Assembly (NCBI GenBank): GCA_946406415.1
Contig: CAMJKR010000003.1
Span: 1-35,574 of the forward strand
Source: an uncultured Selenomonadales bacterium
GTDB taxonomy: Bacteria > Bacillota > Negativicutes > Selenomonadales > Selenomonadaceae
DNA: 35,574 nt
Direction: 5' to 3'
Shown: one piece after another, positions 13,888 to 35,574 of the stretch
How positions within the stretch are numbered: the stretch's first letter is position 1
How the letters are laid out: the number at the start of each line of letters is the position of its first letter
Program-made: the position numbers and the translations under genes
Notes under the pieces: model-generated
What the model was told of the DNA's origin: nothing
What the model saw: the letters and a program-made list of their open reading frames with translations, nothing else
The model's database searches: none

Positions 13888-13905
13888 CTTCAGCGGTGAT
13901 TCTCT

Positions 13906-18572: not shown

Positions 18573-19775
18573 TTAGACTATCGATAAGTTCAGCTTGTAA
18601 ATTTTCTTGCTACCGTCGCCGCCAGATTCGAGGACGTGTCTTGTCGGCATGTTGTCAAGGCGAGATTTAACGGTATTGCGGGATTTGCCTGTCGCTCTCA
18701 TCAGTCCTTCCATCGAAATGCCACCGCTAAAGAAAACGCTTGACTGCAAAAGTGCCTCGTATATCGCTTTAGTCAGTTCATCTCCTTCAATCAGCGCAGA
18801 AAGTCTCTGGCGGTACTTTGTCAGTTGCATGATTTTGTTATTCAGTAAAAGCGATATGTCGTCGAAAGTCGCTGAAACGATTTCTGTAAAGCCGAGAACG
18901 AACGAAGTCAGGTCACCGCAGTTCCGTTCGGAATCGGTTTCTCTGAATAGGTCGTAGTATTTCTTCCTGTTCTTCTTTATAAGCACCGACAAGCGAAGCG
19001 CGACCAGTCGGTGAAAACGACCAGCCAAGAAGTACGACACGATGAATCGAGCTGTCCTCCCGTTGCCGTCGTAAAACGGATGGACGTATTCGAAAAGGTA
19101 GTGGAAAATAGCTACTCTAGCAAGTAGTGGCATGTCCGGATTGTGCAGGATTCCCAAAGTGACGTTAAGTAGCTCAATTATCCTTTTTTCGGGCTGAACA
19201 CCACGATGAAGAATTTTGCCGGAACCTGAAGTTATGTCTACGGAGTCTCGTCTGAATAAATCGCCGTCCAGCTTGTGAGTCGGGTCGTTGGTAATGACTT
19301 CTTTGTGGATGAACTCGTCGTAGAAAGCTCGTATATCTTCGCATGTTTTGAATTGCATTGGCGCAGAATCAGTCAAGATACTCTTGTACTTAGCAACAAT
19401 GCTGGAGAAGCGTGCAGACTGTACGGAGCCGCTGACAACTTCTTTTATTTCCTTGCGTGTACTATGAATGCCCTCGATGTCGCTGGTTGCCCTAACTTCG
19501 TCCACGACGCTGGACAGGATGAACTGTTCTAACACCAGAGGCGGAACGGCTTGCAAGGCTTGCAGTAAGTCCTCGTGTTTCTTGTAAATTCCCTCCATTA
19601 GCACAGCAAATTCTTCCGTGTAACAAAAAAAAGCCGGATACTTATTCCGATGATTATACTCTTGTATTTGGAAGTCGAAATGCCGAGTCAGCGGTGAGTT
19701 AAACCGCTCGACGTAAGTTTTGTTATGTTCAGCAGGACGCTTGTAATAAATTTTGATTAAGGACTCATATTCCAT
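18573..19775 (-). CDS. fic: Fic-domain protein (class II) with C-terminal winged helix
   Basis: A 400-aa Fic protein, a family that usually transfers AMP (or another nucleotide phosphate) to target proteins. The catalytic loop HPFYDGNGRTAR at about 231-242 is a full match to HPFx(D/E)GNGRxxR. An N-terminal inhibitory motif TSDIEG (97-102) marks it as class II, with its own autoinhibitory helix. The C-terminus (GGISMEGLMRATGKSRNTVK) is a winged-helix domain, as in many Fic regulators. It starts at ATG 19775 with AAGGTGG in front. It follows the BREX operon on the same strand but has its own inverted-repeat control region overlapping the end of the desulfurase gene. A link to defence is plausible but not shown. 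Confidence 0.9.
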   Translation of the reverse strand: MEYESLIKIYYKRPAEHNKTYVERFNSPLTRHFDFQIQEYNHRNKYPAFFCYTEEFAVLMEGIYKKHEDLLQALQAVPPLVLEQFILSSVVDEVRATSDIEGIHSTRKEIKEVVSGSVQSARFSSIVAKYKSILTDSAPMQFKTCEDIRAFYDEFIHKEVITNDPTHKLDGDLFRRDSVDITSGSGKILHRGVQPEKRIIELLNVTLGILHNPDMPLLARVAIFHYLFEYVHPFYDGNGRTARFIVSYFLAGRFHRLVALRLSVLIKKNRKKYYDLFRETDSERNCGDLTSFVLGFTEIVSATFDDISLLLNNKIMQLTKYRQRLSALIEGDELTKAIYEALLQSSVFFSGGISMEGLMRATGKSRNTVKSRLDNMPTRHVLESGGDGSKKIYKLNLSIV

Positions 19776-19782
19776 GATTTTA

Positions 19783-19859
19783 CCACCTTGTCAAAAAGTT
19801 TCGATTTTGATAACCGCTGTGAGTTACCTTATCAAAAACTGCTGATTTTGACAAGGTGG
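19783..19859 (-). promoter_or_regulatory. Nested inverted repeats upstream of fic (likely operator)
   Basis: An outer perfect 14-bp inverted repeat, CCACCTTGTCAAAA (19783-19796) and TTTTGACAAGGTGG (19846-19859), encloses an inner one, TTTTGATAA (19805-19813) and TTATCAAAA (19829-19837). The four half-sites share TT(G/A)TCAAAA. The array covers the fic ribosome site and the last codons of the cysteine desulfurase gene. It could bind a repressor, possibly the winged helix of Fic itself, or fold in RNA as a processing or termination signal. Confidence 0.6.
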
Positions 19860-20999
19860 AAAGATTTTTACTAAATGATTACCAATAGTTTTCGCGTCAT
19901 CATAGGAATTTTCTTTTCCAAAGGTGATTCTGATTGTCCCGCGAATATAATCTTGCGGAACTTTTAGAGCTTGCAAGACGTGAGAAATTTTCGTTTGCTG
20001 CGAGTTGCAAGCTGAGCCGGTTGCTACGCAAATATTTTTTAAATCTAGGCGATGCATTAAAGATTCGCCATCGCAGTCTTTGAACGACAAACTTAAATGA
20101 CCCGGCAAACGATTTTCTCCGCCGTTCAAAATAAAATCGACGCCGTTGCTTTGCAAACATTCGAGCAAAATTTTTGCGCATGCAGAAAGTTTTTCGGCAG
20201 TCTGATTTATGTCTCTGCAATTTTTTTCGAGAGCGAGAGCCATTGCGGCAATCGCAGGAACGTTTTCGGTGCCGGCTCGCCGTGAAAATTCCTGTGAGCC
20301 GCCGTCGATGTAAGGCGAGATTTTTAGCCCGTCGCGAACGTAAAGAAAACCAATTCCCTTCGGAGCGTTGAACTTGTGCGCGGAGGCGGAGAGCATGTCC
20401 ACGCCCAAAAGTTTCACGTCAATGGGAATGTGACCGACTGCTTGCACCGCGTCTGTGTGGAAAATTTTTCCTGACGCGTGCGCAATTTCCGCAAGCGATT
20501 TTACTGGCTGAATCGTGCCGACTTCATTGTTAGCCAGCATGACGGAAACAATTTTCGTCTGCAGCAAAATTTTTTTTTGCAAGTCGTTGGGATTAACCGT
20601 GCCGAATTTATCGACGGGCAACTTAGTTACACTGCAACCGAGATTTTCCATCGCCGCGCAGGAATTTAAAATCGCTTTGTGTTCAATGGCGGAAGTGATT
20701 ATATTTGGACATTCGTTTAAATGTGCGAGCACGGCGGATTTTATCGCCCAGTTATCGCTTTCAGTGCCGCCCGACGTAAAAATAATTTCCTTCGGCTCGG
20801 CATTAATGCACGCGGCGATTTTCTCCCGCGACTCGCGCAAAATTTTTTTCAACGGGCGCGAGAGTCTGTAAGTCGCAGAAGGATTCGCGAAAAAATTTTT
20901 CTGCAGGTCAGTCATCAAAGCCAGCGCGTCGTCGTCAATTTTGGTCGTCGCGGCGTTATCGGCGTAGATTATTTTATTCAAAGAGTTTGCAGCCGTCAT
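19824..20999 (-). CDS. Cysteine desulfurase (NifS/IscS/DndA type)
   Basis: A 391-aa PLP enzyme that would take sulfur from cysteine and hold it as a persulfide. YADNAATT at the N-terminus, the SAHKF PLP lysine near residue 209, the RAGTENVP loop, and the sulfur-carrying cysteine in ATGSACNSQQ near 331 are all present, so it should be active. ATG 20999 is preferred (GAGG upstream) over TTG 21014. It overlaps the 68-aa CxxC gene by 26 bases, which places it as the last gene of the BREX-4 operon. In DNA phosphorothioation systems DndA/SspA feed a PAPS-reductase-like DndC/SspD. Here the matching partner would be BrxP. It could alternatively serve Fe-S assembly for the BrxP cluster. The last residues are encoded inside the fic operator region. 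Confidence 0.9.
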   Translation of the reverse strand: MTAANSLNKIIYADNAATTKIDDDALALMTDLQKNFFANPSATYRLSRPLKKILRESREKIAACINAEPKEIIFTSGGTESDNWAIKSAVLAHLNECPNIITSAIEHKAILNSCAAMENLGCSVTKLPVDKFGTVNPNDLQKKILLQTKIVSVMLANNEVGTIQPVKSLAEIAHASGKIFHTDAVQAVGHIPIDVKLLGVDMLSASAHKFNAPKGIGFLYVRDGLKISPYIDGGSQEFSRRAGTENVPAIAAMALALEKNCRDINQTAEKLSACAKILLECLQSNGVDFILNGGENRLPGHLSLSFKDCDGESLMHRLDLKNICVATGSACNSQQTKISHVLQALKVPQDYIRGTIRITFGKENSYDDAKTIGNHLVKIFPPCQNQQFLIR

Positions 21000-21180
21000 T
21001 TTTAAAGTCCTCAATCTTGTCTAAAATGTCTTGCGGCTCGACTTCCAAAAAATTCGCCAGACATTCAATGCAATAAAAATTCTTGGACTTCATGCCCAAG
21101 AGTTTTTTGTTTATGCCGATTTCGTTTTTGGTAAGCGGGCGTTTACCGCAAGCAATGCAACTGAAAATTTTCTTAGCCAA
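20974..21180 (-). CDS. Small CxxC...CxxC protein (68 aa)
   Basis: Two cysteine pairs, CIACG near residues 8-12 and CIEC near 37-40, make a likely zinc or Fe-S ribbon; a VEPQDILDKIEDFKNDG helix follows. I do not recognise the family. It starts at TTG directly after the BrxL stop codon and overlaps the desulfurase gene by 26 bases, so it is tightly coupled to both. A sulfur-acceptor or adaptor between the desulfurase and BrxP is a reasonable guess from position and cysteines, but nothing more. Confidence 0.75.
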   Translation of the reverse strand: MAKKIFSCIACGKRPLTKNEIGINKKLLGMKSKNFYCIECLANFLEVEPQDILDKIEDFKNDGCKLFE

Positions 21181-22620
21181 TTAAATTACCTCGAACTTCG
21201 GAATAGTTTTGCCGGCGTACTCAATATCAAGCAGGGCAAGTTGTTGTCGAATCGTCGCTCGCATTTGACAAGCGCGCTCAAGGCAGTAACGGCTGAAAAG
21301 TTCTTTGTCGACCTCTTCAGCGCGACGGACGTTCGGGAAAAATAATTTCAAATACGCAGTTGCAATCCGTTTAATCGCGGCGGTATCTCGCGTGTCGGCT
21401 TTGTCGGGAACCTTAACAAGACTGTCGACGATTGCTCGATAGCTGACGTCTTCGCGCATTTCGTGCAAGATTGAACAAAAATATTCGGAGTTCAAAGCCC
21501 AGCCGCAAATTTTCATATCATCATTCATGCGCGGAATATTCCAACCCTTGATAAAGCCGTGAAAGCGTTCAATCAGCGCAGACTCGTGAAAAACCATTGG
21601 CAGTTCGTCAAACATATTTGTTACGCCGTCCATATCCATAGTCGCCTTTGCTATGTTGCCACTTAAAATAACTCCGGCGTCGGCGTTGTTGGAGTGATTG
21701 CCGACCGTGTAGACGCCATTTTCCAGAAAACCCTTCAAAGCGGCGCGAACTTCGTCCGTATCCTTGAAAGAAATCGTTTGCACTTCGTCAAGCGTCACGA
21801 AGTCATTATAGGCGACAAGCCCTTCTTGACGTTTCTGCATGTCGTAAAACATTTTGGCGCGACTCATGATTCCGCCACTTGACAACCATCCAAAACGGCT
21901 GACTTGCCCGAAAACATAAGATTTTCCCGTCCCCTTTGGCGCAAGCTCAATCAGATTTAAACGCTTCTCGATGAAGGGCAAAAGCCGCGTCAACATTGTC
22001 AATTTCTCTTCTTCGTGCTCGTAACCCGCCGCGTTGTAATCAATCGCACCCAACAAAATTTGTAGCCACTCATCGAACGAAAAATTTTTCCGTGCGTCTT
22101 TATAAAAATCCAAGTCGATTTTATACGGGCAAAAATTTTTGAACTTCAATAGCCGAATTTTGCCAGGAATTTTCGGACGAGCATCATAATCGGGCGGACG
22201 ATAACCCAACTCAATCATTCCCCAGACTTCGCGCCCGCCAACCAGTTCATCTTTGTAGAGATACCAAATATTGTCGTCAATCATAGTTTCCTTAGCCGCA
22301 AGCCCAAAGTCCGGTAGGGAAAACGACGCCGCGCCATTGGCAACGTCAATCTCAATGGAAATTTTCGCCAAAAGTTTTACGTGCTCATTTTCCATAACAA
22401 TGCGGCTCTTAATCGCTTTCCAATCGTCTTTTTTCGGAATAAATCGCCGTATGAAATCGGAAAGTTCGTCTGCATCAAATTTGCCGTCGGCGTCCTCGAA
22501 TCGTCGCAAAAGCCAATCGCGCATAAATGACGGCAAACTTAGCGCGGAGAAAAAATTGCTGTTCTTCAAATCTTTATAAACAACCATATCGGAGAAAATT
22601 TTTCTCAATCTATTTTCCAT
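21181..22620 (-). CDS. brxL: BREX protein BrxL (AAA+ ATPase), short form
   Basis: A 479-aa BrxL-like ATPase. Walker A PKGTGKS is at 228-234, preceded by LIELA and followed by FGWLSSGGIMSRAKMFYDM. Walker B is FVTLDEVQ at 274-281. VILSGNI and the ALIERFHGFIKGWNIPRM segment (arginine-finger/sensor region) match BrxL of BREX systems. The Lon-like C-terminal protease part of type 1 BrxL (about 680 aa in all) is not apparent. The ATG 22620 has GAGGGC upstream and lies 12 bases after pglZ. BrxL forms DNA-binding rings in studied BREX systems and is thought to act on phage DNA replication. Confidence 0.88.
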   Translation of the reverse strand: MENRLRKIFSDMVVYKDLKNSNFFSALSLPSFMRDWLLRRFEDADGKFDADELSDFIRRFIPKKDDWKAIKSRIVMENEHVKLLAKISIEIDVANGAASFSLPDFGLAAKETMIDDNIWYLYKDELVGGREVWGMIELGYRPPDYDARPKIPGKIRLLKFKNFCPYKIDLDFYKDARKNFSFDEWLQILLGAIDYNAAGYEHEEEKLTMLTRLLPFIEKRLNLIELAPKGTGKSYVFGQVSRFGWLSSGGIMSRAKMFYDMQKRQEGLVAYNDFVTLDEVQTISFKDTDEVRAALKGFLENGVYTVGNHSNNADAGVILSGNIAKATMDMDGVTNMFDELPMVFHESALIERFHGFIKGWNIPRMNDDMKICGWALNSEYFCSILHEMREDVSYRAIVDSLVKVPDKADTRDTAAIKRIATAYLKLFFPNVRRAEEVDKELFSRYCLERACQMRATIRQQLALLDIEYAGKTIPKFEVI

Positions 22621-22632
22621 TGCTTGCCCTCG

Positions 22633-24537
22633 TCAATCAAAAAATTCAAAACCGTCATCAATTTCTTTAAGCGGTGCAGGATTTTTTTTCGCAGGAGAAA
22701 TTTTAACTTCAACGTTTGCGCCTTGCAAGGTAAATTCAATCACGGGCACCAAAATTTCTTCCAACGTCGCGCCGCCATGAACTTCAACCGACGATAATCG
22801 CCCGCCCGCAAATTTATCGTAATTCGCTAAAACCCAATAGCCGTTTTCCTCCGTCGCACAAGTCGGCTTTTCATCAAGCTCATTTATCGGGCAACAGCGT
22901 CCGGAGTGTTCGCCGTTAGAATTCATTTTGAATTTGTTTTCGCGCCCGAACATTACGGCAAGGCGGCTCGCTCCATGATCAGAAGTCAGAATAATTTTTT
23001 CGGCGTGGTGATTTGCCAAATCATTTTTAATTTCTTCAAGCGCATTATCGATAATTGCAAGTTCGTCGTCAATATAAGTCGGCGCAGAACATTTGCCACC
23101 ATCGAAATTTTCGGACGTATGTTTCAGCTCGTCCAGTTGCTGATTTTTATCGAACTTATCGCCGCGCCAATCGTCATAGAAATTTTTATTCTGGAAAGTC
23201 AGCGTCGGCAAATTTGCACGCGCAATTTTTATCGCCGTTAAAAGTCCAAGTTGTATCGCACGCGCTTTAATATAGCTCAAAAACTCAACGCCGAGAGCAT
23301 CTAACCAATAAAGTTTCGCCGTCGGGTCTGCGTCGTCCAAAATTTTTTGTCGCGTCTCGAATTTATTATACGGTCTTTGCGTCGCCAACTCCCGCACACG
23401 ACTTTTAAAATTTTCATCGTCGACGTTGCAAAGCTTAATCTTTTTGTACTGCCGAAAATAATTCGTAATCTCCGCGTCGCCGAAATCGTAATCCGTCAAA
23501 TAATCGCTCATCGCCGGATAATTTCGCTTCAATACGTCGGGGATTTTTTCTTTGCCCTGCGCGGCTTCAATCATTGCGCGACGCTCTTGGGCAGTATTAT
23601 CCGTCAAATATTTTATGGCGTCTGGAAAAGTTTTCAGCCGCTCAAGATACTCGGCGAGATATGGCGACGTAATATTTTTGACGGCGGCTTTCCTCAGCGA
23701 ATAAAATTCATCAAAAGTTTTTTCGTCCGCAACGTCAAGCAACGCGAAGAACAAATTTTTACAATACGCCTCGAAGTTTGCGGAACGAGTGAAGACAAAG
23801 CGCAAGTACGGATTAGAAATTTTATTCTTGAATCCCGCCGCGAAGCTACGCCAATGTTCCGGAGGATAGCCTTCGCAATTATTATCAGAAAAATATTCTT
23901 GCCACTGCCAATCGCTTAGCGCGTCGGGGGAAATGTTGAAATGCGGCTCCTGATTTTTAATCGCGTCGTAAAAATTATTTATTGCCGTGACGTTTTCTAG
24001 CGGCAAATTTGTCTGCACGGTCGCCGAAGTTTTGCCGCTCTCCATCAACTTTAGCAGTTCGGAAAAATTCTGGGCGTCAGTCGGAAAATTTAACGCGGGA
24101 TTATACTTCACGACGGAAAAATTTACTTTACCTTCGATGCGGCAAATTTGATTCGTTCGAAATTTAAAATCTTCGTCGGCAAGACGCTCCAACAAGTTCG
24201 CAATGCCCCGACAGACGAAGATAACTTTCCGATTAAAGCTTTTATCCTGTAACGCCCGCAGAATATCTTCCTGCGCGGTGAAAAAAATATACTCGCCTAA
24301 TCCGAAGACAAGCGCGTTATTTGTCAGCGCGTCTAGCTTTTCGACAAGTAAATCAGTATCAAGTAGAAAATCGCCTTTGCATAAATCCGAAATGTAAATT
24401 TTATCGAAGTCGCCGAGAAATTTTTTGAAATCGGCATTACCGTCCGAAACGACAAAATACGGGCTCAATGTGTCGCGATTCAAGTAAATACGAATTTTTT
24501 TCACGGCGTCAGCAATGCTTAAAATCTCCACGCTCAA
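22633..24537 (-). CDS. pglZ: BREX phosphatase-domain protein PglZ
   Basis: A 634-aa PglZ-family protein, alkaline-phosphatase-like. The C-terminal half carries LYWLDALGVEFLSYI near 406, ILTSDHGASRLAVMF near 513-527 and HGGATLEEILVPVIEF near 590, all typical of PglZ. The N-terminal half is helical and variable, as usual. The start overlaps the brxC stop as TTGA (TTG 24537); a GTG six bases on, with better spacing from GGGAG, may be the true start. PglZ is the hallmark of BREX; its precise reaction in defence is not established. Confidence 0.9.
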   Translation of the reverse strand: MSVEILSIADAVKKIRIYLNRDTLSPYFVVSDGNADFKKFLGDFDKIYISDLCKGDFLLDTDLLVEKLDALTNNALVFGLGEYIFFTAQEDILRALQDKSFNRKVIFVCRGIANLLERLADEDFKFRTNQICRIEGKVNFSVVKYNPALNFPTDAQNFSELLKLMESGKTSATVQTNLPLENVTAINNFYDAIKNQEPHFNISPDALSDWQWQEYFSDNNCEGYPPEHWRSFAAGFKNKISNPYLRFVFTRSANFEAYCKNLFFALLDVADEKTFDEFYSLRKAAVKNITSPYLAEYLERLKTFPDAIKYLTDNTAQERRAMIEAAQGKEKIPDVLKRNYPAMSDYLTDYDFGDAEITNYFRQYKKIKLCNVDDENFKSRVRELATQRPYNKFETRQKILDDADPTAKLYWLDALGVEFLSYIKARAIQLGLLTAIKIARANLPTLTFQNKNFYDDWRGDKFDKNQQLDELKHTSENFDGGKCSAPTYIDDELAIIDNALEEIKNDLANHHAEKIILTSDHGASRLAVMFGRENKFKMNSNGEHSGRCCPINELDEKPTCATEENGYWVLANYDKFAGGRLSSVEVHGGATLEEILVPVIEFTLQGANVEVKISPAKKNPAPLKEIDDGFEFFD

Positions 24538-27500
24538 GACTCCCTTAAAAGTTTCAAGCCGACCTCATAATTTCTATCAAGCAATTCAATCAAAAGTTTT
24601 TTCGCATCCTCATTGGACATTCGCATAACTCGCGCCGTCACTTTGTCGCAAGCCCCGCCGCTGAAATATTTATTCTCGGCAAATTTCTCGACGATTTCTT
24701 TCACGCGGAGATTAGGATACCATTGATAAACATCGCCCTGAAATTTCCGTTCCAACTCATTGCGGACTTCGTCGTTGTCGTCCAGCAAAACGCGATAATC
24801 TTCGTCGATAATCGCCTTGCGAAAAGCCTCTTCAATTTGCCATTTATCATTGAGCGCGGCAAAATACGACGGTCGCTTTTCAAGATAATCAATCGCAAAC
24901 TGAACGTCTTTTTCTTCCGGCGCATTTGCCATTAAGACATTGAAAACTTTTCGTGCGGTATCCTGTTCCGTTTGCGGCACCATTGCCAAAATTGGCGTGC
25001 GATGAGCTTTCGACCATTCACGCGGAGAATTATTTCCGGCAAGCTTTTGCCACAAATCCACGAGCTTATTCTTTAGCTGCCTACTTTTTATCTTCTTCGC
25101 CAAATCATCAACATTTTTATGATAGCGTCCCTGCGAATCAGTGAATGAGTCCTTCGACAAGCAACTATGGAGTTCTTTAATTTCCTCGTTGTTCAAGCCG
25201 GTCAGCTGATAAGAATATTTGTCGCGCAAAATTCTAAGCGGCTCGGAAAGTGCGTCGTGAATAATTTGGGCGTTGTCTGTAAGTTGGCATAAAAAAAATT
25301 CCCTCTTGCTTTGGGGGATTTCTCCGCGCTCGCAAATTTCTTTCAACGTGGCGAAAAAATTTTTCAACGCCGGATAATAATCGCTGATTACGTCGGCAGG
25401 GATTTTCAGATTGAATCGGCAATGCCCAGCCCAATTTTTTACGCAGTCATTAAGCGACTTGCCGTCAATGCCGAAATTACGACTTTGCGCGACAATTTGC
25501 CAATCGACAATCATTTTTTTTAGGTCGTCTATCGCGGTTTCCCTATCGTGTAGCCAAATGCCGTCGCCAGTAGTTATCCGTCGCTGACATTCCGCGACAG
25601 GATTTTCTATTCCAATTTCCTGCGCCAAGTCAAAAATTATTCCGTCTTCAAAGCTTTTAACGAAATCGGTAAAAATTTCGCAACCCTTCTGCGCGGTCAA
25701 TAAAATTTTCAAATCTTGAAAGGCGGCGGGATTATTCTTCAAAAATTGTCCGGCACGCTCCGCCAAAGCCGATACACTGACTGCTTGCTTTGAATTGGCA
25801 ATTTCCGTTATCAGTTGCAGAAAATTTTTATAATCGACCTGCGCGGCGTCGACGTAGCACCAAAGCGGATAGCCTAAATTTTTTAGTTTCAAGCGAAGTT
25901 TCTGCGCACTCTGCTCAATGGAAACATCTTCCGCCACGCCGAAAATTTCCGACGCAAACTCCATGAACTGACGCTGATTTGGCGACATAATCTCAAGATA
26001 TTTCGGGCGATAATTTCTTGCAGGCGAAAGTGCTTGCTTGATGCTATCGTTAATACATTCCGCCAACTTCTGGACGCTCATTGCGCCGCCTAAATTGCCG
26101 TCGATACCCGCACTGAATCGGTAAGGGTCGCCAGCATATTCTTTAAGCAAAAAGCCCGTTAAAAATGCATAAATATTCAGCGGCATAAACCCACGCTCAA
26201 TCAACCAACTAAAAATATCGTCAAAGGAGATATTAGAATTCTTTTCAATCCCACTTTTAATCAGCGCGTCGAGTTTGATTTTCAAGCGCGAAATATTTGC
26301 GTGGGGATAAACTTCCCAATACTTATCGGACATTTGCCACGCGTCACGCAGAACGATTTTAATTGAATTCGCCTTGAGCATGGAAAATTCTTCCTGTTTT
26401 ATGCCCGCTTCGGAAAGCCGCTTTAAATTTGTAGACAAAAAAAGCGTGTCCGTGATATTTGCATTGTCGAAGGAATAAGGATAAAGTCGGCGCACGTTGT
26501 CTTTAAGCTCTTCGGTAATTTTGTCCGCGTTCTGGCAGGAAACGCCGTTGCGCTCTTCGTCATTAGTTTTGGTCGCAGGGTAGTAAACAAAGGAGCCGTC
26601 CGCAAAAGAGTTATACCACTCCCTAAGACAATCGACGGCGTTATTTCTCATTTTGTCGGCAAGGGAAGGTTCTTTGCTACGCCAATATTTTTCGTTCGCG
26701 GCGTTTTCAATCCAGCGCGTGAAGACTTCACGATTTATAAGATTGGACGACGCATCAATAAAAACCAGCCTGTGATAGCGTTCGTTGCGAATTGCACCGC
26801 CGACCAGATTATAAATTCTATTCTGTTCGTCCTCGTTGCGAGCAAAGCAAACAACCGCTTTAATATGATAATCTTCTTTTTCGTTAGTGATTCGATTTAT
26901 TGTTAGCGTAAAATTATCGGCGGTCACAGCGTGAAGAACGTAGCGAGCTTTTTGCGCCGCAGTCAGAGTTATCGTTTCAAGCAACTTAGCATTTTCCACA
27001 AGTTCGGCAGTCCTAACAGTTTCAGCAATGGATTTTTTCAGCCGTTCAATTTCCGCAAAATCTCCTCCCAGAGCCATTGCCGCGAAAGTATCTGCTTCGC
27101 CTAGTCTGCCCGGTTTCTTGAATAAAAATTCCTTGCGAACTAAATCATTAGCGATAGTGACGGCTCGTCCATTTTCCATATCGGAGACGCCGGTGAATGC
27201 CAGTTCCAAATTTTTTTCTGTCGGGTGGAAAAGGTCGACGCTACCGCCTGATTCTTGGTCAATCGCCTGGAAAAGCAAAATAGTTTTAAAAACAACTTGT
27301 TCATCGAGATTTAATCTGTCTTTGTTGAGCGTGTAAGAGTCGAGAATTGCGCGAATTGACGGTTTTAAATTCATGCGTCCGACGTTGCCGCCGTGTTCGT
27401 CCGTGCCGCTCTCGTAAAAAAAATTCCACAGATAATCTATCGTTAGAAGGTCGCCTTCTTCTGGGCTTTTCGTCGCGATAAATTCTTGGAATGCTTTTAT

Positions 27501-28736
27501 ATTCGGGTCGCTGTTCTTTATGAAATTAAAAATGCTCCGCTGATTGGAGGCGAAGTATGACGCAAGATTTTTCAGCAAAATCACTGTTATCGGGTGAATC
27601 GGCAAAATGTCGGTTAGAACTTTTTCGTTGCGAATTTTAACAAAGTCCATAACAGCTTTGCGCGGCTCGGCGGTACGTTCTCTCAACGCGGCGGAAATAT
27701 ATTCCCATTCGGTTTTAGCAACGTCTTTGACTTTCAGCGCGTGCCCGACAAGTTCAAGTGCGATATTATCGGGCATTGTGATATTCATATGCGTAAATCT
27801 GTCGCTAACAATGCGAAAAGCTTGGTCGCCTTCACCGGCTAAACTTTGTGATTCGTGCGTGGCTATGACCAAATAAAAAGGCGCGATATTCGACAATTCC
27901 GCAAGCCGCTGGAATTCGTCCAAGTTATTACGGTTGTTGCCGAAGAACTTGGAGAACTCGTCCCAAAATAAAATAATCGCCTTCAAATCGTTTTCGGCGA
28001 TAACTTCGGCAATCCATTCTGTCAATTCCTTCATGTTGATATTGAAGGCAAGGATACCTTCGCGCTCGCCGAGCTTCAAAATATCTTCGACGAGTTGAGA
28101 GACGGGGGCTTGAGGATTTTTAAGGCGTTCGATAATTTCTTCCGCGCTCCGACTAGCCAAAGTTGCGGACATGCGATATTCGGGCTTTTGAATTTTGGCG
28201 CGGAACATTTCAAGATTTGCTCTGTCGGATTCAAGCCAATTCGCGATTTTGCCGCGCAAAGTTTTTGCGCCGTCGAATTTGCAACCGTTCTTTTTGAGCA
28301 CGGCAGTTAAGCTCTCGAAAACGGCAAAAATCAATTTCCGCGTGGAAGTTATATCGCCGGTAGCGTAGCGGGCAGCCGTAATGACTTTGCCTTTGCGAAT
28401 TGTGCGGAGACGTTCGCGCAAATCAATTTCATCGCGCAAATTGTCGTATTCGTCAAAATAGGCGTCGAAGTCACTTTCAGTGCACGACAAAAGATTTTGA
28501 ATCATCCAGAGGATACGCGACTTGCCTGTTCCGTAAGAGCCTTCAAGCCAAAGACTTTTCTTTTCCGAACGCGACAACGCACGCTCAATCATTTTCAACA
28601 GCGCAACAATATCCTTGTGCGGAAAGGTGTATTGCCATTTGTTTTTCGGGTCTTTGATAGAGCTTTCGTTGATTTCGGGGTAATAGCCCTCGTCAATCTC
28701 GAAATATTCAAGATACTTATTTGGTTCGTATGCCAA
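24534..28736 (-). CDS. brxC: BREX large ATPase BrxC (type 4)
   Basis: A 1400-aa P-loop protein. Walker A GSYGTGKS is at 66-73 and Walker B AIILFWDEFSKFF at about 253-265. The N-terminus (YFEIDEGYYPEINE) and the FYLVIATHESQSL sensor region resemble BrxC/PglY proteins, and the long helical remainder is typical. It starts at TTG 28736 with an excellent GAGGAGGG six bases upstream, 12 bases after brxP. In BREX, BrxC is needed for both host DNA marking and phage exclusion. The size and partners place it as the type 4 version. Confidence 0.9.
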   Translation of the reverse strand: MAYEPNKYLEYFEIDEGYYPEINESSIKDPKNKWQYTFPHKDIVALLKMIERALSRSEKKSLWLEGSYGTGKSRILWMIQNLLSCTESDFDAYFDEYDNLRDEIDLRERLRTIRKGKVITAARYATGDITSTRKLIFAVFESLTAVLKKNGCKFDGAKTLRGKIANWLESDRANLEMFRAKIQKPEYRMSATLASRSAEEIIERLKNPQAPVSQLVEDILKLGEREGILAFNINMKELTEWIAEVIAENDLKAIILFWDEFSKFFGNNRNNLDEFQRLAELSNIAPFYLVIATHESQSLAGEGDQAFRIVSDRFTHMNITMPDNIALELVGHALKVKDVAKTEWEYISAALRERTAEPRKAVMDFVKIRNEKVLTDILPIHPITVILLKNLASYFASNQRSIFNFIKNSDPNIKAFQEFIATKSPEEGDLLTIDYLWNFFYESGTDEHGGNVGRMNLKPSIRAILDSYTLNKDRLNLDEQVVFKTILLFQAIDQESGGSVDLFHPTEKNLELAFTGVSDMENGRAVTIANDLVRKEFLFKKPGRLGEADTFAAMALGGDFAEIERLKKSIAETVRTAELVENAKLLETITLTAAQKARYVLHAVTADNFTLTINRITNEKEDYHIKAVVCFARNEDEQNRIYNLVGGAIRNERYHRLVFIDASSNLINREVFTRWIENAANEKYWRSKEPSLADKMRNNAVDCLREWYNSFADGSFVYYPATKTNDEERNGVSCQNADKITEELKDNVRRLYPYSFDNANITDTLFLSTNLKRLSEAGIKQEEFSMLKANSIKIVLRDAWQMSDKYWEVYPHANISRLKIKLDALIKSGIEKNSNISFDDIFSWLIERGFMPLNIYAFLTGFLLKEYAGDPYRFSAGIDGNLGGAMSVQKLAECINDSIKQALSPARNYRPKYLEIMSPNQRQFMEFASEIFGVAEDVSIEQSAQKLRLKLKNLGYPLWCYVDAAQVDYKNFLQLITEIANSKQAVSVSALAERAGQFLKNNPAAFQDLKILLTAQKGCEIFTDFVKSFEDGIIFDLAQEIGIENPVAECQRRITTGDGIWLHDRETAIDDLKKMIVDWQIVAQSRNFGIDGKSLNDCVKNWAGHCRFNLKIPADVISDYYPALKNFFATLKEICERGEIPQSKREFFLCQLTDNAQIIHDALSEPLRILRDKYSYQLTGLNNEEIKELHSCLSKDSFTDSQGRYHKNVDDLAKKIKSRQLKNKLVDLWQKLAGNNSPREWSKAHRTPILAMVPQTEQDTARKVFNVLMANAPEEKDVQFAIDYLEKRPSYFAALNDKWQIEEAFRKAIIDEDYRVLLDDNDEVRNELERKFQGDVYQWYPNLRVKEIVEKFAENKYFSGGACDKVTARVMRMSNEDAKKLLIELLDRNYEVGLKLLRES

Positions 28737-28748
28737 CGCCGTCCCTCC

Positions 28749-31028
28749 TCAACGGTCAAACAATTTTAAAACGTCCTGCGAAGTCTTTTCTGGCACGAGC
28801 GAAATTTTTTCAAGATCATGGGTGAAAGTCGCGCTGATGAAGTCGGGATAATTTGCCGACAACCCGTTCAGAAATTGTTGCATTTCGTCACGGTCGATGC
28901 CGAAAATTTTTACCGGACTCACGCCCGCTGAATCAGAATCGCTCATTAGCCGCGACAGGTTGAATTGATACCAGCCGTCAGACGCTTCCGCGAATTTATA
29001 CAGCGCGTACAGGATAACTCGCCCGTCGTCTAACTTCGCTTTTGTGCGCTTCAACGTCGATAGATTTTTCCCGTCGCTTGTCGTCGTCCCGAAGTTCAAT
29101 TCTGTACCCAACGGAATTTCGCACAGCCGCTTAAAAGCCTTCACGATTGACTTTGAATCTTTAGCGGAAACCTCAACCGCTTGCAATTTTTCTTCGACAA
29201 CTTCGCGGGTAATTCCTTCCCTAACAGGCAAATTTTCTATGTACCAGCGCATTTGCGGATTATTGTAAACGAGATTGACTAAAATCAAGCCCCACGCCGT
29301 CGCCGTATTCCAGCCGATTTTCTTTACAAGTTCGGTAAAGTCGGTAGTAGCTTTATTTTTTCTGTCGACAAGTTCCGCGTCAAATAAAAAGCGTTTGAAC
29401 TTCGCGATTTGCATTACTCCCAGTTGATTATTTTCTAAAAACAATTTGGGGTTTGCAAAAAATTCTTTCAACCATTCGGGCTTTGGTGCATGGTCTAAAA
29501 AAGTATTCAGACTTTGCATTTTATCTATTCCTCCTTCGTTCGGCAATTTGCCAGAATCAAAAGCTAAGCAACCAGTCTCAATGTTATGACACTGCAGACA
29601 GTGGACGCATTTTTTTTCGTCAATGTGCAAGTCGTCCTTGAAAGAAATCGCGCCGTGTCTACAATTTGATTCGCAGACGCCGCAACCTACACAAGCTGCC
29701 GCCTTATGGAAGACAGATTTAAAAATTTTCATAGCGGGCGACTTATCATAGACGGCTTTGACTTTCGCAATAACGGTTTTATCTTCCGCTTCGTTGACTT
29801 CGTAAGGGAAGGCAGGCTCGCCGATAGTTTTAATCCACTCGCGCCAATCGGTTTTGGGAGCCGTGACGGTGATATAAAAATAATAGCCGGAAATTTCTTC
29901 GCGGTAATTGGTCACGGGATTTTTTAAATCTCTGCCGTTTCGCCTGTTCACCCAGCCACCGTTTGTTATGTAAGAATAAATATTTTCGTCGGTGACATTC
30001 GCGCTTATGTAATCTATAAATTTTTTCAACTCGTTAGGGTAGGCGTGATTGCGAAAAAAATCTGCTCTGCCGCTACTCATCGGGCAAAGCAGACAACCTG
30101 CGCGGGAATTGCCTTTCTTGTAAGTTTCGTTAATGGGCAAATTATGTATGAAAATATAAAGCCAAATTTCCGCCGCGCCCCATTCCAAAATTGAGTTATG
30201 AGAATATTGCCCGCGCTGTTTCATGCCGATATTTTCCACGTCGTAGCCAGAACGCTTGACGCTCTCTTGAGCACGGACGCCGACAAAATCCGCTCCGACG
30301 AAATCGGGCTTGCCCAAAATCTCGCGAATTTTCAAAGTTTGTGGCGCGGCTTTATGGACGCTACAACACCAGCGCAAGACAGTAGACGGCGCGCCAAAAA
30401 GTTTCCAAGACTCTTCGGGCAACATTTTTGACGCAGCGCGATAAAAACCGATACCTTCAGCTTTACATTGTTTTTCAACAGCGTCAACAATTTTATAAGT
30501 GTCAGGGAATTCCATTCGTGTATCGCCGAAGACGACGATAAAAGACGCCTTAGGCAGGGCGTGCTTAACCAAATCCAGCAAAACGACAGAATCTTTTCCG
30601 CCGCTGAACGCTACGTGAAAACAATCAAGCCGCGTGTGCATACACCGCCAATAATTGTAAATGCGCTTAATGGTCGCCTGGCGCAAGTTTTCCATTAGCT
30701 CAAAATTTTTCTCGGACATTTTATTTAGGTTGACGGGCAAAAGCGTTTCGCCTTCCGGCAAGCCGTCTTCCTCAACGAACTCAAGCGCGGGCTTTTCATA
30801 AAGGGAACCGCCCTTGACGACGACAATTTTTTTCCCGCGATAAAAATAGTTGCTCGCCTCCGCCCAAAGGTATGGAACGTCATTTTGATTTTCGTAATGC
30901 CAGCGGCGGTCAAAGCCCAAAATATTCATTTCTTCGGCGTAGACTGGGCGCGGCTCTTTAGACATAGGAGCTTCAGTATCTGTCAGCAAAATGCCGCCGG
31001 TCTCTTCGTCGAAATTATAAGCGTACAT
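28749..31028 (-). CDS. brxP: BrxP: PAPS-reductase-like protein with 4Fe-4S and DUF4007-like domains
   Basis: A 759-aa protein that marks this as BREX type 4. The central PP-loop ATPase has FSGGKDS (142-147), VVFGDTRMEFPDT, LRWCCSVHKAAP and NSRAGCLLCPMSSGR, as in PAPS-reductase/DndC-like enzymes that activate a substrate with ATP and handle sulfur. Near 443-475 is a ferredoxin-like pair of clusters (CVGCGVCESNC and CVHCLQC). The C-terminal 230 residues (WLKEFFANPKLFLENN to the end) resemble DUF4007. ATG 31028 is chosen for GAGAGG seven bases upstream; it starts one base after the previous stop. DndC uses the same chemistry to put sulfur into DNA, so a phosphorothioate-like DNA mark is a fair inference. 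Confidence 0.9.
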   Translation of the reverse strand: MYAYNFDEETGGILLTDTEAPMSKEPRPVYAEEMNILGFDRRWHYENQNDVPYLWAEASNYFYRGKKIVVVKGGSLYEKPALEFVEEDGLPEGETLLPVNLNKMSEKNFELMENLRQATIKRIYNYWRCMHTRLDCFHVAFSGGKDSVVLLDLVKHALPKASFIVVFGDTRMEFPDTYKIVDAVEKQCKAEGIGFYRAASKMLPEESWKLFGAPSTVLRWCCSVHKAAPQTLKIREILGKPDFVGADFVGVRAQESVKRSGYDVENIGMKQRGQYSHNSILEWGAAEIWLYIFIHNLPINETYKKGNSRAGCLLCPMSSGRADFFRNHAYPNELKKFIDYISANVTDENIYSYITNGGWVNRRNGRDLKNPVTNYREEISGYYFYITVTAPKTDWREWIKTIGEPAFPYEVNEAEDKTVIAKVKAVYDKSPAMKIFKSVFHKAAACVGCGVCESNCRHGAISFKDDLHIDEKKCVHCLQCHNIETGCLAFDSGKLPNEGGIDKMQSLNTFLDHAPKPEWLKEFFANPKLFLENNQLGVMQIAKFKRFLFDAELVDRKNKATTDFTELVKKIGWNTATAWGLILVNLVYNNPQMRWYIENLPVREGITREVVEEKLQAVEVSAKDSKSIVKAFKRLCEIPLGTELNFGTTTSDGKNLSTLKRTKAKLDDGRVILYALYKFAEASDGWYQFNLSRLMSDSDSAGVSPVKIFGIDRDEMQQFLNGLSANYPDFISATFTHDLEKISLVPEKTSQDVLKLFDR

Positions 31029-31029
31029 T

Positions 31030-32481
31030 TTAATGCCTCTCATCAATCATTTCTTGTGCTCGCGCAATTATTCGTTCAGTAACTTTGTCAATACATCTTG
31101 CTCGGAAGCCCTTATCAACCAAAAAATCTTCAATGGCAGATTTTTCGAGCGGCACTCTTTCTTGAACGACCGCTAAAGCTTGAACGTCAAGATAATCCGC
31201 GAATTCCATAGACTTGGGATAAATTGCGCCTGCGTTCACACTGTTAGCGGCGGGAGCAGCATAAACATATTTTTTGCTGTACTTGCGCAGAAAACTTTCG
31301 AGCAGGAACAAGTTCCACGAATAACCTTCGACCGGCGGAAAACCCGTAAAACTCGTGACGCCGCGCAAAGGGATAATTTTTCTCTTAATGAAAGGTCTTA
31401 AAGCTTTGTCGACTTCAACAACGTCAAAATTTATCAGCGCGTCTTTGACGAATAAATCTTTATCAACGCGAACCATTTGTTCATAAGCGGAATAAAGCGC
31501 GACATATCGAACGACCCCAAAATTTTCCGCAACTTCGGAAAGTTTTTCTAACGTCAATTTTTCTTGCTCGCTGATAAATTCTTGGAAATCTTTAATCGAA
31601 CCCGTTTTAGTTTTTTTATCTTCGGTTTGCTCGCCGATGAATTCACGAAAACGATTTGACGCCCCCGTTACACTTTTTCTGCCGGCGATACCTCTTTTGA
31701 AAAGCCGTTTGCCGCGCTTTGTGAAATTTTCGGAGAAAAATTTTTCGTAGATAATGTTGCGCATATCCTTTTCGGCGACTTCGGGATTGAGCGCGAAATT
31801 AGAAGACAAGCTGTAATCTTCTGGGATAGCGTAGCCGACTTTGTCAATGTACAGAGAAATTTGCTTTTTAGCGGCGTCAATTTCGTCTGTATCGAATTGG
31901 ATTTTAGAAAAAGGAATAAACTTGCCCGCGCTCGTCGGCAAATATTTTTTAGCGTCGGAGAGCACTTCCAAAATTTTTTCGGACGGGACATAAGGCAACT
32001 TTTCTTGCAATTCGTCAATCGAAAGCGAAGTTTTTGCCGCCGTAAAAATCTGCGCAATTAAATAATCAAGGCGCACTGCTCTTTTCGCCGAGCAGAATTC
32101 TGAAAAATAAAAATGTCCGCCAACAGCTGTTTGTAAAATCTTCTTCAAAACGTCGGGCGAAAAAACATGCGTAGCAACAAAAAAGTCCGAATGCTTTTCG
32201 TGAATTTTAGTATAGTAGGCAATTGAATTCGCACTCAAAATTTCGTCGAGAAAATGACGAATACTCTCGGCGTTTTCGTCGGAAATGAAATAAAACCGCC
32301 CGCCATCCTCAATACCATTTGCGCGAATAATTTCCACAATGTAATTGCGCGAAATGTGTTCTCCGTCATTGTTTACCGAGTAAATGCGCGAAACTTTGCT
32401 CGTATCAATGAAGTCGTCGCGTATCCCGTTTGGAAAATTGCTCTTCATAATATCAACAACATTTTTAACAATATCTTGCAT
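31030..32481 (-). CDS. Unrecognised 483-aa protein, first gene of the BREX-4 operon
   Basis: No family recognised with confidence. No Walker, nuclease or methylase motifs and no membrane segments are visible. Several stretches read like winged-helix units (TSLSIDELQEKLPYVPSEKI around 150-170, KSAIEDFLVDKGFRARCIDK near the C-terminus), and a basic segment (TKRGKRLFKRGIAGRKS) near 255-275 could bind nucleic acid. It may be a DNA-binding or regulatory component. It starts at ATG 32481 behind AGGATGAT and the oriT2-edge promoter, and ends one base before brxP. Being first and so tightly coupled, it is likely a true part of the system. Confidence 0.75.
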   Translation of the reverse strand: MQDIVKNVVDIMKSNFPNGIRDDFIDTSKVSRIYSVNNDGEHISRNYIVEIIRANGIEDGGRFYFISDENAESIRHFLDEILSANSIAYYTKIHEKHSDFFVATHVFSPDVLKKILQTAVGGHFYFSEFCSAKRAVRLDYLIAQIFTAAKTSLSIDELQEKLPYVPSEKILEVLSDAKKYLPTSAGKFIPFSKIQFDTDEIDAAKKQISLYIDKVGYAIPEDYSLSSNFALNPEVAEKDMRNIIYEKFFSENFTKRGKRLFKRGIAGRKSVTGASNRFREFIGEQTEDKKTKTGSIKDFQEFISEQEKLTLEKLSEVAENFGVVRYVALYSAYEQMVRVDKDLFVKDALINFDVVEVDKALRPFIKRKIIPLRGVTSFTGFPPVEGYSWNLFLLESFLRKYSKKYVYAAPAANSVNAGAIYPKSMEFADYLDVQALAVVQERVPLEKSAIEDFLVDKGFRARCIDKVTERIIARAQEMIDERH

Positions 32482-32533
32482 TATATATCATCCTAAAATC
32501 TAAACAATACTTAAAAATCTCTCTTTTTTAGAG

Positions 32534-32562
32534 ACTATACCACAAGAAAAATGGTTTGTCAC
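32534..32562 (-). promoter_or_regulatory. Promoter of the BREX-4 operon at the oriT2 edge
   Basis: Minus strand: -35 GTGACA (32557-32562), 17-bp spacer, -10 TATAGT (32534-32539), 52 bases before the first start codon. It is the counterpart of the promoter at 13859-13887, with the same spacer length and -10. A short TCTCT/AGAGA repeat around an A-run, then T5, lies at the start of the transcript (about 32514-32532) and might attenuate it. Confidence 0.75.
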
Positions 32563-32701
32563 TCAATGCCCAAAAAATAGTGCAAAAATAGTGCACGCGG
32601 ATTTTGGTGAATGTGGTAAGATATGTCAAAGTAGGTTTAGTCGAGAATGTTCACTTATGCATTTCACTACGTGAAATGCCAAAAATCCCGCGTTCTGACG
32701 C
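32534..32701 (-). other. oriT: oriT2: second MOBQ-type transfer origin, inverted relative to oriT1
   Basis: Minus strand: hairpin arms GCATTTCAC and GTGAAATGC (+ strand 32659-32667 and 32671-32679) around a 3-base loop, then A and TAAGTGAACA (32648-32657), the same ten-base core as oriT1. Tandem 11-mers (32574-32595) and the flanking GCGTC (32697-32701) are also conserved, and the block is 168 bp in both copies. It lies 79 bases before the start of relaxase copy 2, which is the usual place for a cognate oriT. Confidence 0.8.
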
Positions 32702-32780
32702 AAAAAACAGCTCAAAAAATATGCCAGTCGCTATGCTCCTTGAACCTGCGGTTGGCTCTCGAAAGGGAGGAACATCTTCT

Positions 32781-35574
32781 TTGGCGATGTATCATTTCCG
32801 TATCAAGTCGGACAAGAAACCGAAAGGAACGAAAATTTCTGCCGTCAAACATGTGGAATATATTAACCGTGAAGGCACTTTTGCGCACGACGAACGCTGG
32901 AAACAAAACAACAAATTCGTCGGCAATTTCATCACGACGGCTCAGATGCCAAACGCGCTTGACGGACTAAATGCGCTCCTTTACAAGACCGATGATTTTG
33001 GCTCTATTAAAAATTCTGAGCGCGGGATTGAAGTCACTGAAAATTTTTCCCACACCACTATTGCCATTGCGCTTCTGTTAGCCGACAGAGCTCTGAATCA
33101 TCAACCACTGATTATAAATGGCTCTCCCGATTTCCATAAGTCGGTATTGAAAGTCGCCCTTCAAGATAATCTCCCTATTTCTTTTCACGATAAACTTATG
33201 CAGGAAACTTTTGAACTGCGAAAACGAGAAAATGAAACCGAAAGAAGAAACTTCCTCGCCAACGGAGGAAAAATTGTCACCAAACGCCCAAAATATCAAT
33301 CTCGGATTCATCCAGCTCGCGTTAAAACTATAAAGGAAGCAACAAAAACAGGATTTCATTTGCCTTCATTATCTCAACTTCCGTTGCTAAAGGAAACATC
33401 GGAAGGAATAAAATTGACCGAAGATGAAGCACTTGACTTAAAAGAATTCATGCGTGAACAATATCAGCGCGTTCGTTATGATTTTTCCAGCGAGCAAAAA
33501 AGTTTTGCCCAGCTGACTGTTAAAAAAATTTTGGAAAATGTGGAAGAGGCACGTAAACAACAATCTGCCGTTTCTCACGCTGAGTATATCAATCGAGAAA
33601 AAGCGTATGAAAATCGCGGTGGCTGTATCTTTCAATTTTATTGCCTACCGAAATGAGCGAAGAACAACCCAAAAAATTTTTTCCAAGCCGCCGATAAATA
33701 CGAAGGCGTCGGACATCGCAGATATGTCGAGATTGAATTTGCGTTGCCAAACGAATTAAAAACGGTCGAGCAGTATCGGCAGATTATCGACGCTTTTATC
33801 GCTAAACATTTGAGCGACCATTATTATGCCTACGCGATACACAACAAAATAGGAATGATGTCAGACGGACAACATCATCCACACGTTCATATTATGTTTT
33901 CCGAACGCCTCATTGACGACGTGGAACAAAAGGAAGAACGAGCCGCTAAAGCTTTCTTTCTCTATCCGGCACGAAAGAAAAAAGACGGCTCTGAACCGCC
34001 TTTCGAGGAAAAATGGAAACGCGGTGCCCCTAAAGACCGTAAGTGGTGCAATCGGCAATACGTAAGCGAAATGCGCGCTGACTTTGCTCGAATTCAAAAT
34101 GCTGTATTGGAGCAAAATGGTTTTTCCATTCGCGTTGACCATAGAACACTACAGGCGCAAAAGGAAGAAGCGGAGAAAAACGGCGATACTTTTCTTGCCA
34201 GACTTTTTAGCCGTATTCCGGAAGAATATGTCGGTATCATTTCCTGCAAAGAAGATGATGACCCAAAAGTAGAACGGCTGAAAGAATTTCGCTCTCTTCG
34301 CAAACAGCATTTTGGTTTAATCATGAAAATAGACGCTATAGCGAAGGAAACGGAAGAATTGGAAACTAAGGACTCTGTTCAAATTGCCTCTACCGCCACA
34401 AAAAGGCTCATGGACTCGAAAGAATATACTGAGCAAAAATTTTCCTCACCATATCTTTTGGAATTGAAAAATAAAATGCTGACAGCGATAGCGGAAGTGA
34501 ACAAATGGAAGCGCGTCATTATTTCCCAACATGATGCCGAAGAACGAGCAAAACTTGAATACATGACTAAATTCGAGCGGGAGCTTTGGCAAAAATATTT
34601 TGAAACACTTGCCCAGAAAAAGCAGATGGAAGAATTTTTGCAGACGCTCAAAAAGCCCGAAGAATCGGATAAAGATGAACTTAAAGCTTATGAGGAGCTT
34701 ATTCATGGCGTTAATTCTAAAATTTTTTCACTATTGACAGAGGCACGAGCGATGAAAAAAACAGTGGAGGACATCAAACGCCGCCTTGAAAAACCTGAAT
34801 TCAAAAATAATATCCTGATGGTGACGCACCGGATTTTACAAGCAAACACGCACGCAAGAAAAATGCTAAAACGAGCAAGCGAGGAGCTCGACAAAGCGGT
34901 CGATGACCTCAGAAATGCATTGTTCGCAAAGACTTTGGAAGAGTCGCAAACCAGTTTCAAAACCCGTGAAGTTTACGACCTGATTCATCAGCAGTATCGC
35001 GCCCTTAAAAAGGAACACGAGGATTTGTTCGTTGAAAAATTTCACATCCAACGCCAGATAATTTCGCCGGAACGCGCTATCTTTATGGCGAAAAATATTT
35101 TTGTACGTGGAGAATATAAAAGACTGCGCGAAAAGATTCGGCGATACAAAAAAGAAGAGCAAAAGCTTGCTCCTAAATTGCTTGCTTATGCTAAGGAAGA
35201 AAAAGAGTTCCAAAAGCGAGACTGGTCGGTCTTCCCACGCTCTACTTTTTTGCAAGTGCAATATTATCTGACCAAACAGCGTACATTGCTGGAATTGGAA
35301 AGAAGCCATCTCGACCAAATTAAATTCTCTCTTCAAAACAAACAAGCCGAGTTGGAAACATTATGCCGCCAGCCCGACGCGGCGAAGAAAATCGAAATCA
35401 TTGCTATTGGCATTCTTCGCAAAAATTCAAGATTCGTTCGTCAGCTTGAAGAAGTCGAAAATCGCGACAAAGAAATACTTCAGCGCATGAATCACGCTAA
35501 AGAGCAAATGAAAGCATTAGAAAACCGTATTGCTCTCGATAAAGTCAATACTCGTTATCGTGTTATGGTTTCAG
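32781..35574 (+). pseudogene. mobA: MobA/MobL relaxase (copy 2), interrupted by TGA at 33654 and cut by the window end
   Basis: The likely start is TTG 32781 (MAMYHFRIKSD, aligning with MATFHLRIKND of copy 1; GGGAGG at 32765-32770). Residues 1-35 match the relaxase N-terminus, then about 240 extra residues come between two YINRE motifs (near 29 and 270). The frame stops at TGA 33654-33656 after CLPK, exactly where copy 1 has Trp (LPKWAKG). The same frame then stays open from AKNNPKNFF to the window end. It includes HHPHVHIMFSERLIDDVE (the HUH metal motif), GAPKDRKW, HRTLQAQKEEAEKNG and a long coiled tail. One G-to-A change would explain the break. A restart at ATG 33855 would lack the N-terminal part of the catalytic fold. 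An assembly error is possible. Confidence 0.8.

What the first reader, a model, noticed from the sequence alone, without database searches (positions are those of the whole stretch)
19824..32481. Type 4 BREX operon carrying its own cysteine desulfurase and a small CxxC protein
The order unknown-brxP-brxC-pglZ-brxL-CxxC-desulfurase is continuous on one strand, with gaps of 0-12 bases or overlaps. BrxP is a DndC/PAPS-reductase-like enzyme with Fe-S motifs and there is no PglX methylase. A dedicated desulfurase plus a CxxC protein would complete a sulfur route (Cys to persulfide to BrxP to DNA), suggesting BREX-4 marks DNA with sulfur. The sulfur route is an inference; the fused gene order is seen.
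Basis: partly seen in the sequence, partly recalled or inferred. Interest (0 to 1): 0.78.

Follow-up and report, generated by a model that had tools for sequence, protein, structure and literature searches.

The report
Sulfur-marking BREX-4 phage-defence operon
This is a complete copy of a known bacterial anti-phage system (type 4 BREX) that is thought to mark the cell's own DNA with sulfur and that carries its own sulfur-supplying enzyme; the surprise is that the operon's unnamed first gene, a string of DNA-binding-like modules, turned out to be one of its most constant extra parts.

Summary
In detail: window 32481-19824 (minus strand) is one tight operon, U483-brxP-brxC-pglZ-brxL-Zn68-cysteine desulfurase. 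Papers cite Yuan et al. [quoted passage not shown] I tested the linkage independently. In related loci with enough flank the desulfurase is present in 40/55, always directly after the small protein. All 47 BREX-linked desulfurases form one clade apart from 51 other Bacillota desulfurases (100/96 support) and from Dnd-linked ones. It is a dedicated part, not a chance neighbour. The small CxxC protein is probably not a dedicated sulfur relay: 55/55 loci have it, 15 without a linked desulfurase, and relatives sit beside alpha-galactosidase-like genes. It is a predicted winged-helix array with swappable N-terminal DNA-binding modules, and the literature text I could read does not name it. Sulfur in this organism's DNA was not testable here.

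The parts
32534..32562 (-). Promoter-like site (GTGACA, 17 nt, TATAGT with an extended TG) 52 bases before the first gene
   Evidence: Consensus scan only; not evidence of function by itself.
31030..32481 (-). U483: 483-aa winged-helix-array protein, first gene of the operon, unnamed
   Evidence: Homologue upstream of brxP in 72/73 loci; AlphaFold2 model pLDDT 92.3; fold matches to multi-winged-helix proteins.
28749..31028 (-). brxP: PAPS-reductase/PP-loop domain, ferredoxin-like Cys cluster, C-terminal DUF4007-type region
   Evidence: PADLOC BrxP 797 bits; Pfam PAPS_reduct 2.4e-28 and Fer4; SGGKDS, C227/C228, C318/C321 and eight Cys 452-493 invariant in 12 homologues.
24534..28736 (-). brxC (1400 aa), AAA+ type ATPase
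   Evidence: PADLOC BrxC 791 bits; GxYGTGKS Walker A motif invariant in 10 homologues.
22633..24537 (-). pglZ, BREX-4 type (634 aa, shorter than most homologues)
   Evidence: NCBIfam BREX_PglZ_4 348.7 bits, cutoff 140.
21181..22620 (-). brxL
   Evidence: TIGR02688 419 bits, cutoff 329.3; Pfam BrxL_ATPase and BrxL_N.
20974..21180 (-). Zn68: 68-aa protein, CxxC-x25-CxxC plus C-terminal GCxLF
   Evidence: Present in 55/55 loci; invariant Cys in 59 homologues.
19824..20999 (-). Dedicated group-I (NifS/IscS-like) cysteine desulfurase
   Evidence: Aminotran_5 255 bits; PADLOC DndA 413 and SspA 410 bits; one BREX-4 clade of 47.

Best explanation
A complete type 4 BREX phage-defence operon that marks self DNA with phosphorothioate. 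The dedicated desulfurase takes sulfur from cysteine as an enzyme persulfide and passes it to BrxP. BrxP, a PP-loop enzyme with predicted Fe-S clusters, activates a DNA phosphate with ATP and inserts the sulfur at sites chosen by DNA-binding parts (the DUF4007-type region of BrxP, BrxC, and probably U483). Unmarked phage DNA is then blocked through PglZ and BrxL. U483 is inferred to be a DNA-recognition or regulatory adaptor; Zn68 a small zinc-binding adaptor rather than a sulfur carrier. Shown here: gene content, order, linkage, a separate desulfurase clade, intact active-site residues. Shown by others for other BREX-4 loci, as cited by papers I read: phosphorothioate synthesis. Inferred: every step of the mechanism in this organism.
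For: All four BREX-4 core proteins present over curated or strong scores. Desulfurase linked in 40/55 loci, same strand, directly after Zn68, one clade of 47 with 100/96 support across ten phyla, apart from Dnd-linked enzymes, catalytic residues intact. No second IscS/NifS-type enzyme found in the host assembly. Literature: brxPCZL listed as phosphorothioate synthesis genes; desulfurase proposed as sixth core component.
Against: No phosphorothioate was measured in this organism. 15/55 loci do without a linked desulfurase, and in a Bacillota sample found through PglZ it is the minority (2 of about 12). The primary paper on BREX-4 phosphorothioation could not be read. The host assembly is only 84.5% complete.
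Confidence: 0.75

Rival explanations
1. The desulfurase mainly builds the Fe-S clusters of BrxP, as a NifS-like maturation enzyme, and the sulfur put into DNA comes from another donor or by a separate step.
For: BrxP has eight invariant ferredoxin-type Cys and a further CC...CxxC set, so it needs Fe-S assembly. The enzyme scores higher with NCBIfam NifS (421.6 bits) than with DndA (296.8 bits), though below both cutoffs. The title of You et al. 2007, cited in PMC12839542, says DndA can assemble DndC as an Fe-S protein.
Against: Loci without a linked desulfurase keep the same BrxP type, so neither role is exclusive. The two roles are not mutually exclusive.
Confidence: 0.2
2. Zn68 is a sulfur relay: its invariant C-terminal Cys accepts persulfide from the desulfurase and hands it to BrxP.
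For: Five conserved Cys, one on a short C-terminal tail; its gene overlaps the desulfurase start.
Against: 15 loci have Zn68 without a linked desulfurase. Relatives keeping the C-terminal Cys lie beside alpha-galactosidase-like and hydrogenase-like genes. A housekeeping desulfurase could still use it.
Confidence: 0.12
3. The desulfurase is a chance neighbour or passenger gene without a role in BREX.
For: It is missing from 15/55 loci.
Against: Same place in 40 loci over ten phyla, one exclusive clade, clustered on the BrxP tree (11 changes, shuffled mean 21.4, 0 of 500 shuffles as low).
Confidence: 0.03

Closest known systems
Type 4 BREX (brxPCZL); Yuan et al., Nat Commun 2026 17:1717 (cited, not readable here); NAR 2026 gkag035 (PMC12839542)
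   Same: All four core genes in order, no methylase, linked cysteine desulfurase and small zinc-finger protein, PAPS reductase with ferredoxin-like region.
   Different: Adds U483, which the readable text of gkag035 does not name. PglZ is shorter than most relatives.
Dnd phosphorothioation system (DndABCDE)
   Same: Desulfurase plus PP-loop sulfur-transfer enzyme; desulfurase resembles DndA (413 bits in PADLOC).
   Different: BrxP is not DndC (20.6 bits against a cutoff of 290.4); the desulfurase is below the DndA cutoff and outside the Dnd-linked clade; no DndD or DndE in the operon.
Ssp phosphorothioation system (SspABCD)
   Same: BrxC and BrxP show weak similarity to SspC and SspD (75 and 50 bits), and the desulfurase to SspA (410 bits).
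   Different: Core proteins score far higher as BREX-4; PglZ and BrxL are present.
MzaA of the MZA defence system (lead for U483 only)
   Same: Some U483 relatives carry a sigma-70 region 4 helix-turn-helix and match MzaA there (L109).
   Different: The match is confined to the short HTH module; the conserved C-terminal core is unmatched and the window copy lacks the module.

Membership tests
Type 4 BREX | BrxP (PAPS-reductase-like) in place of a PglX methylase | tested here: met
   PADLOC BrxP 797 bits over the full length; no methylase hit in the operon.
Type 4 BREX | BrxC, type-4 PglZ and BrxL in one operon | tested here: met
   BrxC 791 bits, PglZ_4 348.7 bits (cutoff 140), BrxL 419 bits (cutoff 329.3); contiguous on one strand.
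Type 4 BREX | Phosphorothioate modification of host DNA | not testable with these tools
   No DNA chemistry available; reported for other loci according to PMC11931770 and PMC12839542.
Type 4 BREX | Protection against phages | not testable with these tools
   Needs an infection assay.
Dnd system | DndA equivalog (TIGR03235, cutoff 480 bits) | tested here: not met
   296.8 bits; BREX-4 clade separate from four Dnd-linked desulfurases (quick tree, long Dnd branches).
Dnd system | DndC equivalog (TIGR03183, cutoff 290.4 bits) | tested here: not met
   BrxP scores 20.6 bits; no DndC in the host assembly at E 1e-60.
Group-I cysteine desulfurase | PLP lysine, active-site histidine and catalytic loop cysteine | tested here: met
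   H112, K214 and C336 (numbering from TTG 21014) kept in 47, 47 and 46 of 47 BREX-linked enzymes.
Tandem winged-helix proteins (U483) | Several winged-helix units in a row | tested here: inconclusive
   High-confidence model, Foldseek E 2e-5 to 2e-3 to UFL1 and SelB C-terminal region, single winged-helix matches Z up to 8.8 at residues 136-193; common fold, no sequence match.

The most novel reading that the evidence does not exclude
U483 is an overlooked core subunit of the larger clade of type 4 BREX: a winged-helix-array protein whose constant C-terminal core docks to the BREX machinery while a swappable N-terminal DNA-binding module (sigma-70 region 4, HARE-HTH or integrase SAM-like) sets which DNA is marked or attacked.
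Probability: 0.25. Interest if true: 0.6.

Novelty: new member of a known kind. Interest (0 to 1): 0.35.

Why it matters
The operon adds a Selenomonadaceae example to a published system, so by itself it is ordinary. The census and trees sharpen two points. The desulfurase joined this branch of BREX-4 as one lineage and comes and goes (11 changes on the BrxP tree against about 21 in shuffles). The most constant unexplained component is U483, present in 72/73 loci with a modular N-terminus. If U483 sets specificity it would help explain how a methylase-free BREX chooses its targets.

Tried and rejected
Chance neighbourhood of the desulfurase was rejected. The idea that loci carry a desulfurase because the host lacks one does not hold generally: three genomes have both, and six of ten relatives in the host's family have a group-I enzyme. 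A viral-contig scan with the single BrxP found nothing. Profile searches of solved structures with U483 and Zn68 gave no significant relative, and the Zn68 fold search had no match below E 1. Upstream genes of two loci without a U483 hit: L015's 540-aa gene is a likely distant relative (hhalign 90%), L010's is not matched. No end overlap that would show a closed circle was found. Yuan et al., the original BREX paper and the supplements of gkag035 could not be read, so whether they name U483 is unknown.

Full report
What is there. On the minus strand of the window, from 32481 down to 19824, seven genes lie head to tail: a 483-aa protein without family hits (here U483), BrxP, BrxC, PglZ, BrxL, a 68-aa protein (here Zn68) and a cysteine desulfurase. 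The four core proteins score as type 4 BREX in PADLOC and NCBIfam; PglZ passes the curated BREX-4 cutoff (348.7 against 140 bits). No methylase lies in the operon. A Fic-family gene (18573-19775) follows on the same strand.

Where it is. The window is the whole of contig C3 (35,574 bases) of a 2.6-Mb, 404-contig, 84.5%-complete assembly. A public contig of an 'uncultured Selenomonadales' MAG is 99.9% identical over window 27376-35574, and the nearest other operons are in Selenomonadaceae MAGs from ruminants. The rest of the contig holds MobA/MobL relaxase genes at both ends, a DUF927/PriCT-2 primase-like gene, a DnaB-like helicase gene and a type III restriction-modification pair. It looks like a mobilizable element with stacked defences; it was not shown to be circular.

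Is the linkage real? A scan of one genome per species with a BrxP alignment gave 80 loci. L042, the own organism, was left out and eligibility was set by available flank. A U483 homologue lies upstream of brxP in 72 of 73 loci. Zn68 follows brxL in 55 of 55. The desulfurase is present in 40 of 55, directly after Zn68 and on its strand, never without Zn68. This sample favours window-like BrxP. A sample of Bacillota genomes found through PglZ instead gave, among about a dozen readable loci, Zn68 in 8, U483 in 6 and the desulfurase in 2; one further genome, G050, has Zn68 plus desulfurase on a separate contig. So U483 and the desulfurase mark one large clade of BREX-4. Five loci on the other side of the BrxP tree (L003, L004, L005, L007, L010) lack both.

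Is the desulfurase dedicated? In a maximum-likelihood tree of 98 desulfurases, the 47 BREX-linked sequences, from ten phyla, form one clade with 100/96 support, apart from 51 desulfurases of Bacillota genomes. Adding four desulfurases that lie near dndC genes does not break the clade (SH-aLRT 98; the Dnd rows have long branches). The active-site His112, the PLP Lys214 and the catalytic Cys336 are kept in 46-47 of 47. Presence of the desulfurase needs 11 changes on the BrxP tree against a shuffled mean of about 21. With the single clade this fits one early recruitment and repeated loss, although the count alone cannot tell gain from loss. All ten BREX-4 genomes of the Bacillota set whose readable locus lacks a desulfurase have a group-I enzyme elsewhere, so a housekeeping enzyme can plausibly stand in. 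In the window's own assembly no other IscS/NifS-type enzyme was found, only more distant class-V hits such as one on contig C55. Four of ten near-complete relatives in the family also lack one. The assembly is incomplete, so this is not proof.

BrxP. Twelve homologues share the PP-loop SGGKDS, a C227-C228 pair with C318/C321, and eight Cys at 452-493. From general knowledge the first four resemble the CC...CxxC [4Fe-4S] site of APS reductases and the eight a two-cluster ferredoxin. Three clusters per BrxP is an inference.

The small protein. In 59 homologues C8, C11, C37, G63, C64 and F67 are invariant and C40 nearly so: a CxxC-x25-CxxC pair plus a C-terminal GCxLF. The model is mostly helical (pLDDT 83) without a significant fold match. 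In 398 Bacillota genomes all strong matches (E below 1e-25) lie in BREX-4 genomes, counting G285, where the neighbouring BrxC and BrxL are fragmentary. Weaker relatives that keep the C-terminal Cys and Phe lie beside alpha-galactosidase-like genes (L035-L038) or a hydrogenase-like gene (L040) (neighbours named by eye). With 15 loci lacking a linked desulfurase, this argues against a dedicated sulfur relay and for a zinc-binding adaptor or regulator.

The first gene. U483 models with high confidence (pLDDT 92.3) as a chain of winged-helix-like units. Foldseek's best matches are multi-winged-helix proteins such as UFL1 and the SelB C-terminal region (E 2e-5 to 2e-3); a second look finds single winged helices over residues 136-193 (Z up to 8.8). 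These are common folds and show no function. Relatives reach well over 1,000 aa by N-terminal extension, with sigma-70 region 4 (L109), HARE-HTH plus integrase SAM-like (L094, weak) or integrase SAM-like (L072) modules. The window copy is the bare core. Among 398 Bacillota genomes, seven of eight strong matches lie in BREX-4 genomes and the eighth (G265) has a brxP start directly downstream. Weak matches occur elsewhere, for instance beside an HKD-nuclease/helicase-like gene (L186; named by eye). A DNA-recognition or regulatory role is an inference.

Against the literature. PMC11931770 lists brxPCZL (BREX type 4) with dnd and ssp as phosphorothioate synthesis families. [quoted passage not shown] Both cite Yuan et al., which I could not open. 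I did not find U483 in the passages I could read; the supplements could not be searched.

Verdict. Observation confirmed. Interpretation largely right for the desulfurase but known; weak for the CxxC protein. The operon is a new member of a known kind, and the lead worth following is U483.

Noticed in passing
13764-13889 and 32532-32657: Inverted repeat of about 126 bp, 85% identical, holding two copies of AAAAATAGTGC. One copy lies before the primase-like gene, the other before the right-hand relaxase gene and over the BREX promoter-like site; possibly a transfer origin or shared control region.
   Followed up: partly
5200-9350: Type III restriction-modification pair (N6_N4_Mtase and ResIII) on the same contig, so at least two defence systems are stacked.
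   Followed up: no
69-1991 and 32604-35573: MobA/MobL relaxase genes at both ends of the contig, the right one split into two ORFs: mobilizable element, possibly with a broken second relaxase.
   Followed up: no
18573-19775: Fic-family gene directly downstream of the operon on the same strand, SoFic-like 129.5 bits in PADLOC; also present next to the operon in L043.
   Followed up: no
L192 1-13140 (MT835511.1): A complete U483-BrxP-BrxC-PglZ-BrxL-Zn68-desulfurase operon on a record labelled 'UNVERIFIED: Bacteriophage sp.' from human faeces; more likely a mislabelled bacterial mobile element than a phage.
   Followed up: partly
L187 5265-7161 (NZ_CP049815.1): Annotated sigma-factor-like HTH protein beside a plasmid dndCDE-desulfurase locus; its visible part does not match the U483 profile.
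   Followed up: partly
L046 15458-17111: In this Selenomonadaceae locus the pglZ/brxL junction appears inverted relative to the operon (part of brxL and pglZ on the other strand): possible phase-variable inversion or assembly error.
   Followed up: no
L035-L038: Zn68-like small proteins next to alpha-galactosidase-like genes (between two of them in L035 and L036): an unexplained second home for this zinc-finger family.
   Followed up: no
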